Shown in pieces: positions 9,701 through 27,700 of a stretch of DNA of 64,000 nt. The stretch lies in NCBI GenBank assembly GCA_030141605.1, contig JAQGDQ010000703.1, positions 45,748 through 109,747 of the forward strand. Reading direction: 5' to 3'. Below the pieces are notes generated by a model. The model saw only the letters and a list, made by a program, of their open reading frames with translations, made no database searches and was not told the DNA's origin. The translations under genes and the position numbers were made by a program. Position 1 is the first letter of the stretch, and the number at the start of each line of letters is the position of its first letter. The DNA is from Tubiluchus corallicola. Its lineage: Eukaryota; Priapulida; Priapulimorpha; Priapulimorphida; Tubiluchidae.

Positions 9701-12700
9701 GAGATGAAGAGGTACCACTGTGATGCCTCCGAGGAGCCGAATCCGGCTGTACTTGCAGGCTATCTTGTAGTGACATCTGGTTTGAAGAACTTGTATCGGT
9801 TTCTGCTAAACAGAAACAAAACAGAACACGTTAAAAATACTTTGCAACATACTCACATTGCCTGAAGAAGTGATGAATTTGTCTCATTAATACTTAGACA
9901 ATTCATTAATTAGTTCAAATTTCAGAACATGTTCTTTGATGAGAAAACGCCCGTGCCATTTTAACAACAAAATCATATCATTTAAGCATGTTTTAATCTC
10001 TAATTGCAGGGACGAGATTGACAAATTGCAAAAAATCTGAATCAGACTGGGGGTTTTGGGCCCGTAATGGGGTTGAAATTGCAATTTTGTGAGTGGACTT
10101 AAAATATCAATTACCTTGTTTCATGCATAATTTAAAATACCCAACTATCAACGATACATGATACCTAATTGTCGCTAAAACGGCTAAGTTCTGGCCGCTC
10201 CTATGCAAAAGTATATAAAAACTGTCTGCAATTGACTCAAATAACTCAGCACAATTGATTCTATATTTTATACATAGAGATATGCACGTGGTTGCACTGA
10301 TATATGTGATGTAAACAAAGTGACGGCCTGCCAACTAGCGGTCAGCTTGTGAAATAATGTACTGGACCCGTAAAAATTTTCTCAACGAATTTACGCGATT
10401 CACAAAAATGGCACTTCTGGTCTTCCAAAAACTCGGAATTCCGCGTATCCGCGGAAAACTCTCATCCCTGGAATTGACATCTAATCTAGCTACTTTTGCT
10501 AGACCTGTTCGCTACAGTTCAGAAGCTAAAACCTTTTCTCCATTAGACTAGGTTGGAGTTCACAATTTCCCACACAATTTAAATACACTAAACCAGGGTA
10601 CCAGGGATACACTAAATACACTGATCTGACAAGCCGGGCCACATTAAACTTTCCCGCAATTCCCAACAGGCAGTTTGATCAAGGAGCCAAGTACAGAAAG
10701 GCCTAATAACGATTTTTTTTGCGTCCGACCTGCGTACATCATTACTACCACACTCAAGAAACTATTTTAGAAGTTATTAAAATTGATATTAGAAACCATA
10801 TATTTCTACTTTCAGGACAGATAGTGGTAATTTCATTACAATGCATATTAGTAATGTGTATCACACAGTCTGTGTAGTACAGTGACATTAAGCTACAACC
10901 GTCTTGTAAGGGTTAATAGCATCCGATCTAGTAGAAAAAACTACCCGCACTATCTTTGAGATTGTGGCACCGACTTCAGCTGGCTACACTCAATTAATCG
11001 CCCGGGCCGCACTTTCATTAGGTTGACAAATCTCTTCGCGGGCCGCACAAATTCTCTCGGCGGGCCGCAATTTGCACACCCCTGCACTAAACCAAACCTT
11101 TGTCTTAACCCTAACGCTAGACCTAACCCTAACCCTAACCTTAATCCACTTTGTGAACTAATTTCTTGTGAGTGGGAATTGTAAACTTTAGCCGGAAGTG
11201 GCATACTGCCAGGATTAGGGCCGACGGCACTGAGATCCCCCCTCATTTGATGAAATGATATACATTCATTTGGAAAAACTTTACAAATCATTCAATAAAA
11301 GTTGCTCAGCTGTTTGGACTAACAATGAAAACATCTAATGAATTACCTTTCAGCGAATGTCCTTGTCCGGTAAAAGCCACACGACCAGTTGATGGCATAT
11401 TAATGGGGTGCCCAAAAGTCACACCCTGCGAGGCAGTTTGTAGAATTTTAGACAGTTCCTCTGAAAGCGGGTCACAATGTTATAATTTACGAAAACTTTT
11501 CTGAACTAAATATAGAGAATACAAAGCAGAATCTAAATCAAGCGGTTTGCAAACAAGTTTTATCAAAATGATTTTATTAAAGTGAATTTTCACTTGTGAA
11601 AAGTTGAAAAATCTGCTTTGAAAATGCTAACCACCTACATACAATACATTTATATAACTACATTACATTCTGTGAGTTGCAATTGTACAATGTACTGCTA
11701 GTATAATGTTTCTACAATGTACTGTTTGTCAATAAACTTATAATTTTATGATACCTCATGATACCTAGAGTTCAGATTTCTAGTATCGCTTTGTAATATG
11801 TGAAAATTAGCCTTTTCACGGTTTCGTTTTGCACACTCGCAGTTGCTGTAGGTCAAAGGTTATGTGTGCCACAGCAACGCGTCTTAACTACAACTGTTAC
11901 ATGATACATGGGTAAACCAAAGCCGTCTGCGGGACGAGTTCAGCAACATCGGTTGTTTTACGTGGATTTTACCTAATTATGCATTAGAGCAATTTATTAG
12001 CCGGCTGGGAACAAGAAAAAACGTAGTATGGAAGGTTCTAGTCAGTTGTTAAAACTGTAACTATTACAACAGCATGGTCTGCGAGGCATTGTCAAATTTA
12101 CATAAGGGCGCTGTCTGGTACACTTAACCTTTGGCCTTTTCTTGATCATCATATAGGCTATGATCATCATGAACTATTAAAAGCCTTTCAAACTCCAACA
12201 TCAACCAACTAGATGCAGCCACTTTGGCAAATCAGTACTCGATTTTTCACCACACACACAGTCAGTTTACTCATCACTACTCGATTTTTCACCACACACA
12301 CTCAGTTTACTAATCACTACTCGATTTTTCACCACACACACACTCAGTTTACTCATCACTACTCGATTTGTCACCACACACACAGTCAGTTTACTCATCA
12401 CTACTCGATTTTTCACCACACACACAGTCAGTTTACTCATCAATACTCAATTTTTCACCACACACACAGTCAGTTTACTCATCACTACTCGATTTTTCAC
12501 CACACACACAGTCAGTTTACTCATCACTACTCGATTTTTCACCACACGCACAATGTCAGTTTATTCATCACTACTCGATTTTTCACCACACACACAGTCA
12601 GTTTATTCATCACTACTCGATTTTTCACCACACACACAGTCAGTTTACTCATCACTACTCAATTTTTCACCACACACACACTCAGTTTACTCACCACTAC

Positions 12701-24700: not shown

Positions 24701-27700
24701 TAGTGGTGAACTCGCAATTCACATGTTGCAAAAACTTGTTGCAGAGAGTCGTTGTCTCTCTGAGAGAAGTTGTCAAGCCGTTCACATGTTGCAAAAAGTT
24801 GTTGTCTCTCCGAGAGAACTTACGAGAATCTTCACGTTTGAACGCGCCACAATTTTGCGACATTTTTGCGACATGAACGTTAGGCAAGCTGCAAAAGTTT
24901 GAATTAGTTTAAGCAGCGCGCGCTCAAGGAAAGCCACGACGTGTTTACTAAAAGTGACAAAGTCTCTCAGTTACGTCATGATTTTTAAGTGAATGGCAGC
25001 CATTATTGTACCTGAAAATTTTTATACGGTGGTAGAACAAATTAACTTTAAGCTTTACAGACAGTTTCTTGTAAATTTCTTTGTTATATTTTTCTAAGTT
25101 TAAATGATAACAGTAAAACAGACTCAAGATACAAACGAGTTGACTTTTCCTTTAACTCTCATCGTGGTTGCGTCTAACCTTTCACTGGCCAAACCACATA
25201 ACATTCTGAATGCCGGCAAAACATGTGAATTATGACGTGTTTAGTCTTACCACGTGATTGGCCAGCGTCCGGGATGACGTGTTTAGCCTTACCACGTGAT
25301 TGGCCAGCGTCCGGGATGACATGTTTAGTCTTACCACGTGATTGGCCAGCGTCCGGGATGACGTGTTTAGTCTTACCACGTGATTGGCCAGCGTCCGGGA
25401 TGACGTGTTTAGTCTTACCACGTGATTGGCCAGCGTCCGGGATGACGTGTTTAGTCTTACCACGTGATTTGCCAGCGTCCGGGATGATGTGTTTAGACTT
25501 ACCACGCGATTGGCCAGCGTCCGGGATGACGTGTTTAGTCTTACCACGTGATTGGCCAGCGTCCGGGATGACGTGTTTAGTCTTACCACGCGATTGGCCA
25601 GCGTCCGGGGATGACGTGTTTAGTCTTACCACGCGATTGGCCAGCGTCCGGGATGACGTGTTTAGTCTTACCACGTGATTGGCCAGCGTCCGGGATGACG
25701 TGTTTAGTCTTACCACGTGATTGGCCAGCGTCCGGGATGACGTGTTTAGTCTTACCACGTGATTGGCCAGGTCCGGGATGACGTGTTTAGTCTTACCACG
25801 TGATTGGCCAGTCCGGGATGACGTGATTGCAGCGTCCGGGATGATGTGTTTAGACTTCCACGCGATTGGCCAGTCCGGGATGACGTGTTTAGTCTTACCA
25901 CGTGATTGGCCAGCGTCCGGGATGACGTGTTTAGACTTACCACGTGATTGGCCAGCATCCGGGATGACATGTTTAGTCTTACCACGTGATTGGCCAGCGT
26001 CCGGGATGACGTGTTTAGACTTACCACGCGATTGGCCAGCGTCCGGGATGACGTGTTTAGTCTTACCACGTGATTGGCCAGCGTCCGGGATGACGTGTTT
26101 AGTCTTACCACGCGATTGGCCAGCGTCCGGGATGACGTGTTTAGTCTTACCACGCGATTGGCCAGCGTCCGGGATGACGTGTTTAGTCTTACCACGTGAT
26201 TGGCCAGCGTCCGGGATGACGTGTTTAGTCTTACCACGTGATTGGCCAGCGTCCGGGATGACGTGTTTAGTCTTACCACGTGATTGGCCAGCGTCCGGGA
26301 TGATGTGTTTAGACTTACCACGCGATTGGCCAGCGTCCGGGATGACGTGTTTAGACTTACCACGTGATTGGCCAGCATCCGGGATGACATGTTTAGTCTT
26401 ACCACGTGATTGGCCAGCGTCCGGGATGACGTGTTTAGACTTACCACGTGAATGGCCAGCATCCGGGATGACATCGACTATGACTCGATCGCCATGTTGT
26501 ATTGGCACTGGATCGTCTTCGTCGCTAGGTGCGCACAATGGCTGTGGAGGAAATCCGTATTTGATCAACTGTCGACTAGCTGGTATGTTTGCATTCTCTG
26601 CTATCATGTTCTGCAGTTGGGCAAAGGTGGTTGCGTTTTGCAATAGCAGGGTGACCTAGAAAAATGAAATCCTATAAGCTATTTAATACAGACTGTATAT
26701 TTTTCCTCCCCCTCCCGCCCCCACCCCCAGAATCTTGTAAAATCAAAATGTTTCAATATAAATGTGTGTCCATTTTGTAAATATAAATTGATTTATTTAG
26801 TAAGTTGCAAATGTGAATGTTCAGTTGTAGTGATAGTTCTGCACCTGACACTTTACACTGATGAATGACATATGCAAATGTAATTTTTACTGACATGTGT
26901 ACTGTTCAAAATTGTTATAATACAAACAAAGCTTTTATACATATATATTGATTTAATTCTTTATTTCAAACATAAGCTCATATTATAATTTGATAATAAT
27001 AAATAAAAAAATAAAAAAATTCATTTGGTAATCTTAGAGGGTGTCCTAGCCATCTTAATCTTGACTTTGACTCGAAGGAATTTCTTTCGTTCTGGTGTAT
27101 AAATCTTCATCTTTGATTATGTACGGCCATCTTATCTTTAAAACTTTCGTAAGAAGACTTCTACGCCAATCTGCTTTTCTTGAGTAATCGTTAAACCCCA
27201 AGTTTCACTGTTGTACATAAGTATGCTGGCAACGTAAGCATTAAATAATCGACGTCTTAAGTTAAGATTTAATTTCTTGCTAATTAGTACATTCTTGTGT
27301 TGAAGAAAAGCATGCATTGCTTGTTGCTTTCTACTTTTAATATCAACTTCGGTGTTTAGTAAAAGTGCCCGCGTATTTGCACTTTTTGCCAAGACCGTTT
27401 GCCATCTCTTACAACAAGATGTTCTTCTGTTTATGAAAAAAATAAAAAAATAAAAAATAAAAAAACATATATACAACATACAACATCATAAAAACAAAAA
27501 ACCAATACAAACAAATCACACACAAACTTTTTTTTCTGATTTGATATATATATATATAATCAAATATAATCATATATATATGTTAAGTCGCAGTTCAGAC
27601 AGAGCTGAACACAATCTGTAAGGCTTAAAACGTGAGGAGAAAAAACTGTCTCATGAAAAATGAACGTATGATGACCAATGGTCAGTGCGACACAGATAAT

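What the first reader, a model, noticed from the sequence alone, without database searches (positions are those of the whole stretch)
12235..26480. Four consecutive VCPIP1 introns (13-16) start with minisatellites whose unit contains the exon end and the 5' splice site
On the gene's sense strand, the junctions of exons 13 (CACGTG|GTAAGT), 14 (CAAGCAA|GTATGT), 15 (GACAAA|GTAAGT) and 16 (GATTAG|GTGAGT) are each the first unit of a 42-, 41-, 49- or 54-bp array. Units carry 17-28 exon bases plus the donor, so ~29, ~9, 4 and ~37 same-sense donors follow the true ones. The four units are unrelated in sequence, so the same kind of event happened independently four times in a row. A recombination or replication process that initiates at exon/intron junctions, or selection for donor arrays, would explain this; chance placement is unlikely. 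It might tether U1 snRNP in a 44-kb gene, or give a scatter of C-terminal isoforms. Function is inference.
Basis: partly seen in the sequence, partly recalled or inferred. Interest (0 to 1): 0.88.

Follow-up and report, generated by a model that had tools for sequence, protein, structure and literature searches.

The report
Splice-site minisatellites ("mirages") in VCPIP1
In one animal gene, five short DNA repeats each begin or end exactly where a coding segment meets a non-coding one, so dozens of spare copies of the cut signal sit in the discarded part; this is a rich new example of a little-known oddity called a mirage, most likely harmless.

Summary
On the minus strand, exons 13-16 of a VCPIP1 gene each end inside the first unit of a minisatellite (42, 41, 49 and 54 bp), with 27, 8, 3 and 35 intact spare donors behind the true ones. 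In 200 kb of another contig, one of 11 arrays repeats an acceptor of an NRBP-like kinase gene. Gapless homology to human VCPIP1 across two of the five junctions implies that the outermost site (first donor, last acceptor) makes the normal protein.

Such structures have a name. "Mirages", minisatellite-like duplications of intron/exon boundaries, are described in lancelet Adh3, globin, troponin C and PGBD5 genes. So this is a new member of a known kind, unusually dense, in a contig that is 24-30% minisatellite (0.9% in the other contig). I found no consistent sign of selection for donor arrays. Genome-wide counts leave one open lead: a consensus donor occurs in tandem about three times as often per site as composition-matched motifs, an acceptor motif half as often as its control. 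The animal is unnamed and no RNA was available.

The parts
25232..26474 (-). 42-bp array: last ~30 bases of exon 13 plus donor; 28 intact GTG|GTAAG including the true donor; exon end at 26445
23838..24230 (-). 41-bp array: last ~33 bases of exon 14 plus GTATGT donor; 9 donors including the true one; exon end at 24198
20981..21185 (-). 49-bp array: last 30 bases of exon 15 plus GTAAGT donor; 4 donors including the true one; exon end at 21156
12231..14753 (-). 54-bp array (with 42-bp units lacking the donor at its far end): about 17 exon bases plus GTGAGT; 36 TTAG|GTGAGT including the true donor of exon 16; exon end at 14737
42278..42700 (-).
26445..26655 (-). VCPIP1 exon 13 (UBX-like domain)
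24198..24362 (-). VCPIP1 exon 14
21156..21346 (-). VCPIP1 exon 15; homology to human is gapless into exon 16
14737..14851 (-). VCPIP1 exon 16
42191..42302 (-). VCPIP1 exon 5; homology to human is gapless from exon 4
9487..51189 (-). span of the VCPIP1 coding exons found in the window (17 exons, 16 introns; boundaries of exons 10 and 11 approximate)

Best explanation
These are mirages: minisatellites whose founding tandem duplication happened to span an exon/intron boundary. The duplication is tolerated because the outermost site, the first donor or the last acceptor, still joins the original exon ends, so every extra copy lies in the intron and is removed. The arrays then grew by slippage or unequal exchange, like the many ordinary minisatellites around them. 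Five occur in one gene because this contig stretch is exceptionally rich in minisatellites, perhaps helped by a bias towards donors. Shown: the anatomy; that the exons join in open frame with the outermost sites; that homology requires the outermost site at two of the five junctions; the regional array density. Inferred: neutrality, the growth mechanism and splice-site choice in living cells.
For: Anatomy at both kinds of boundary. Exons 1-9 and exons 12-17 join into open frames with the outermost sites; I did not test every inner site, and the 42-bp unit would keep the frame. Human VCPIP1 aligns without a gap across exons 15/16 and 4/5. Array DNA is 24% of the window against 0.9% of 200 kb of C1844 and about 30% of the adjoining 45.7 kb (summed by hand). 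An NRBP-like gene in C1844 shows an independent acceptor case. Donor positions show no consistent extra conservation. Published mirages match: units of 10-160 bp, both boundaries, Adh3 data and globin RT-PCR suggesting regular splicing.
Against: Five junction arrays of 15 exceed random placement, and the donor consensus is over-represented in tandem genome-wide, which pure chance does not explain. The exon 13 array stays open in the exon's frame, so in-frame use of later donors is possible. The exonic copies are no more divergent than the intronic ones (0-2 differences in the exon-derived part), so I see no sign that the array edge escapes homogenisation. None of 13 arrays examined next door straddles a junction. 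No RNA seen. The organism may not be a lancelet.
Confidence: 0.8

Rival explanations
1. Minisatellite birth is biased towards 5' splice sites: some transcription- or replication-linked process (for example an R-loop or nick near the exon end) starts tandem duplication there more often than elsewhere.
For: Tandem triples of MAGGTRAGT are 911 per 16,339 sites against 173/10,783 reversed, 210/9,616 and 34/4,697 permuted. Distinct arrays listed in contigs C1-C236: 15 for the donor motif, 4 for the reversed, 2 for the permuted motif. Acceptor motif TTTYCAGR is not raised: 526/89,517 against 541/47,468. Four of five mirages in VCPIP1 are donors.
Against: Match counts are dominated by long arrays; three of the 15 donor arrays share a 26-bp step and may be one dispersed family. 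GTAAGT triples without exon bases are hardly raised (18,083 against 17,237; microsatellites dominate). MAGGTATGT is raised less (72/6,667 against 31/6,595). None of 13 arrays examined in the adjoining 45.7 kb straddles a junction, and the one junction array in C1844 is at an acceptor. Genic location was not controlled.
Confidence: 0.25
2. The donor arrays are selected as decoys or U1 snRNP tethers, or to give a scatter of isoforms.
For: 36 of 38 junction strings in the exon 16 array keep TAG|GTGAGT. The exon 13 array is open in frame.
Against: Donor positions are not consistently more conserved than the unit as a whole, and 21 of 30 exon 13 junction strings carry GTAAGA rather than GTAAGT. An acceptor is repeated in the same way. 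First-donor use is required by homology at exon 15.
Confidence: 0.05
3. Assembly error: collapsed or falsely expanded repeats.
For: The window ends at the end of its contig; long arrays are hard to assemble. In lancelet globin BflGb6 the draft version of a mirage appeared misassembled.
Against: Copies differ from each other by 3-5% on average, the exonic first units join to unique sequence, and five unrelated arrays show the same design.
Confidence: 0.05

Closest known systems
Lancelet 'mirages' (Adh3, globins BflGb6 and BflGb9, troponin C, PGBD5); PMC3087553 section 16 read, PMC3902484 passage seen; the original Adh3 paper (Canestro 2002, PMC117041) is not held and was seen only as cited
   Same: Minisatellite-like tandem duplication whose unit spans an exon/intron boundary, at 5' or 3' sites, many units keeping AG/GT signals, normal splicing expected
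   Different: Five in one gene, up to 28-36 donor copies, in an animal not shown to be a lancelet; no polymorphism or RT-PCR data here
[quoted passage not shown] not held, seen only as citations and a one-sentence summary)
   Same: A minisatellite supplying several splice donors at an exon end
   Different: There downstream repeat units are used as donors and give isoforms; here homology implies the first donor at exon 15
Internal tandem repeats at exon-intron boundaries of human segmentally duplicated genes (PMC2812944, passages)
   Same: Minisatellites of about 30-bp units at exon/intron boundaries
   Different: Those alter splicing patterns or form novel introns in recent paralogues; here the gene is old and the protein conserved
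Intron gain by tandem duplication across an intron-exon boundary, potato RdRp (PMC4974935, abstract and introduction)
   Same: Tandem duplication crossing a splice boundary
   Different: Single duplication giving a new intron; no array

Membership tests
Mirage | Tandem repeat unit spans an exon/intron boundary | tested here: met
Mirage | Occurs at 5' and at 3' boundaries | tested here: met
   four donors and one acceptor in VCPIP1; one acceptor in an NRBP-like gene
Mirage | Regular splicing is undisturbed | tested here: inconclusive
   open joined frames and gapless homology at two junctions support it; no RNA
Mirage | Copy number unstable between haplotypes or in somatic tissue | not testable with these tools
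   one assembly only
Mirage | Host is a lancelet (true of the published cases seen) | tested here: inconclusive
   no GFP-family match, but the control rang nowhere; GC 34.8% in the 200-kb sample, lower than the ~41% I recall for Branchiostoma
IFI6-type minisatellite supplying alternative donors | Inner donors are used in mRNA | not testable with these tools
   no RNA; at exon 15 homology requires the first donor

The most novel reading that the evidence does not exclude
Minisatellites in this genome are born preferentially at 5' splice sites and not at 3' sites, so exon ends act as hot spots for tandem duplication and for intron growth. By subtraction of the reversed control, consensus donor sites would carry tandem triples about eight times as often as background sites ((911-173)/(16,339-10,783) = 0.13 against 0.016).
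Probability: 0.2. Interest if true: 0.7.

Novelty: new member of a known kind. Interest (0 to 1): 0.42.

Why it matters
In the papers I could see, mirages come from a handful of lancelet genes. A gene with five of them gives several natural experiments on how a spliceosome picks the outermost of up to 36 nearly identical donors. The donor/acceptor asymmetry in the genome-wide counts makes an old question testable: whether tandem duplication starts at splice sites, or merely survives there.

Tried and rejected
Coverage test goes against junction enrichment: 5 of 34 junction windows recur against 31% of intron windows; I keep the founder-count test beside it because a junction can lie only in an edge unit, but both are given. 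GTAAGT triples were of little use because tetranucleotide microsatellites dominate. Arrays at 31986-33810 (donor motif antisense to the gene), 60226-60518, 34503-34815 and the one ending near 51219 were checked and do not straddle junctions. Window arrays outside VCPIP1 at 4047, 6872, 8371, 54928 and 55893 were not tested, for want of gene models. Of 14 arrays in the adjoining 45.7 kb I examined 13 by eye, without a full gene model; the one running off the contig start was dropped. The 11 C1844 arrays include two that look coding and some low-complexity tracts. I first thought that the exon-adjacent units were the most divergent, but that count took in exon bases outside the repeat; redone within it the exonic copy differs from consensus by 2, 2, 0 and 0 bases and the other copies by 1.03, 0.62, 0 and 0.95 on average, so that argument is dropped. 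A search for GFP to recognise a lancelet was inconclusive.

Full report
What is there. The window is the last 64 kb of contig C872 (109,747 bases) of an unnamed animal genome of 343.5 Mb in 2,344 contigs. The minus strand carries VCPIP1: joined exons 2-9 match human VCPIP1 over 549 residues at E 1.5e-199, and exons 13-16 match its UBX-like and C-terminal parts.

The four donor arrays. Exons 13, 14, 15 and 16 end inside the first unit of a 42-, 41-, 49- and 54-bp array. Intact donors including the true one number 28, 9, 4 and 36. The units look unrelated in sequence. Exons 12-17 join without a stop when the first donor of each array is used, and human VCPIP1 aligns without a gap over the exon 15/16 junction. 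Using a later donor there would add 49, 98 or 147 bases. For exons 13, 14 and 16 the choice of donor is not fixed by homology; the 42-bp unit of exon 13 even keeps the frame open.

A fifth array, at an acceptor. Upstream of exon 5 a 55-bp array carries seven copies, with variants, of a TTTTCAG acceptor plus 23-27 exon bases; the last is the true start of the exon. Homology is gapless across exons 4/5, so the last acceptor is the one that makes the normal protein. A donor-only explanation is therefore too narrow for this gene.

Elsewhere in the genome. A contiguous 200 kb of contig C1844, picked by position from a contig listed, holds 11 arrays covering 0.9% of its bases, against 24% in the window and about 30% in the adjoining 45.7 kb of C872 (hand sum). 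One of the 11 is another acceptor case: three 29-bp units, the last being the start of a kinase subdomain XI exon of an NRBP-like gene. The gene name rests on a recalled human query; the exon itself matches at E 8e-10 and the best exon at E 5e-15, while the exon alone gives only weak kinase hits. Of 13 arrays examined in the adjoining 45.7 kb, none straddles a junction by eye.

Chance. Placing the 15 arrays of the gene at random in introns, with an overhang of up to 30 or 60 bases allowed, gives a mean of 0.38-0.95 junction arrays and P(5 or more) of 2e-5 to 1e-3. This is post hoc: the gene was picked because it looked striking. A test by coverage points the other way: 4 of 17 donor windows and 1 of 17 acceptor windows recur within 600 bases, against 31% of intron windows.

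Genome-wide motif counts. Triples of MAGGTRAGT spaced 20-50 bases number 911, against 173 for the motif read backwards. Single sites are 16,339 and 10,783, so the rate per site is 0.056 against 0.016. A permuted motif and its reverse give 210/9,616 and 34/4,697. The donor consensus is thus about 3.4 times the three controls pooled (2.6 to 7.7 singly). An acceptor motif gives 526/89,517 against 541/47,468 backwards, about half. MAGGTATGT gives 72/6,667 against 31/6,595; its single count is about that of its control, so it is a poor marker of donors here. GTAAGT alone in triples gives 18,083 against 17,237. Among contigs C1-C236, the span of the first 100 rows, the donor motif marks 15 arrays, the reversed 4 and the permuted 2; three of the 15 share a 26-bp step.

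Selection on the donors. Per-position divergence over the units shows donors better kept than the unit mean in two arrays (exons 15, 16) and worse in two (exons 13, 14). Within the exon-derived part of the unit the exonic copy differs from consensus by 2, 2, 0 and 0 bases, the other copies by 1.03, 0.62, 0 and 0.95 on average: the arrays are recent or kept alike, with no special edge. I see no consistent case for selected donor arrays.

What is known. Searches show that such structures are called mirages in lancelets: Adh3 (units 10-72 bp), globins (150-160 bp), troponin C and PGBD5, at 5' and 3' boundaries, with regular splicing suggested by the Adh3 data and globin RT-PCR, and unstable length. 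Human IFI6 is a case in which minisatellite units do serve as alternative donors, and boundary repeats are recorded in human duplicated genes. Searches with the words mirages, minisatellite-like, mirage-type and duplicated splice sites returned only lancelet papers (two, one), in an open-access library.

Verdict. A real, dense cluster of mirages in one gene of a minisatellite-rich contig; most likely neutral. The open and more interesting point is the donor/acceptor asymmetry in the whole-genome counts.

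Noticed in passing
window 19262-19380 and 42992-43096 (+): Two matches to 5S rRNA (98.5 and 38.2 bits) next to stretches that look alike in the two places, in VCPIP1 introns: probably 5S-derived retroposons.
   Followed up: partly
window 1-64000 and contig C872:1-45747 (L029-L033): Minisatellites fill 24% and about 30% of the DNA, against 0.9% in 200 kb of C1844: a regional minisatellite-rich domain.
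   Followed up: partly
window 11106-11144; L032, C872:10301-10405: Short telomere-like TAACCC/TTAGGG tracts inside the contig, which may hint at a subtelomeric position.
   Followed up: no
window 41635-42182: A 548-bp (GA)n/(TC)n microsatellite starts 8 bases after the end of exon 5 (GTGAGATG then TCTCTC).
   Followed up: no
window 25177-26655 (-): The exon 13 reading frame stays open through the whole 42-bp array (493 codons), so later donors would add in-frame 14-residue repeats where the phase is kept.
   Followed up: partly
window 31986-33810: A 40-bp array of about 45 copies carries GTAAGT on the strand opposite to VCPIP1, so not every array with a donor motif is a mirage.
   Followed up: yes
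window 3-446 (-) and 59906-60156 (+): Neighbouring genes: a p190 RhoGAP-like exon (name recalled, no Pfam support) and a riboflavin transporter SLC52 exon (Pfam).
   Followed up: no
L011, C1844:122430-122519: Three-copy 29-bp acceptor mirage at an exon of an NRBP-like kinase gene.
   Followed up: yes
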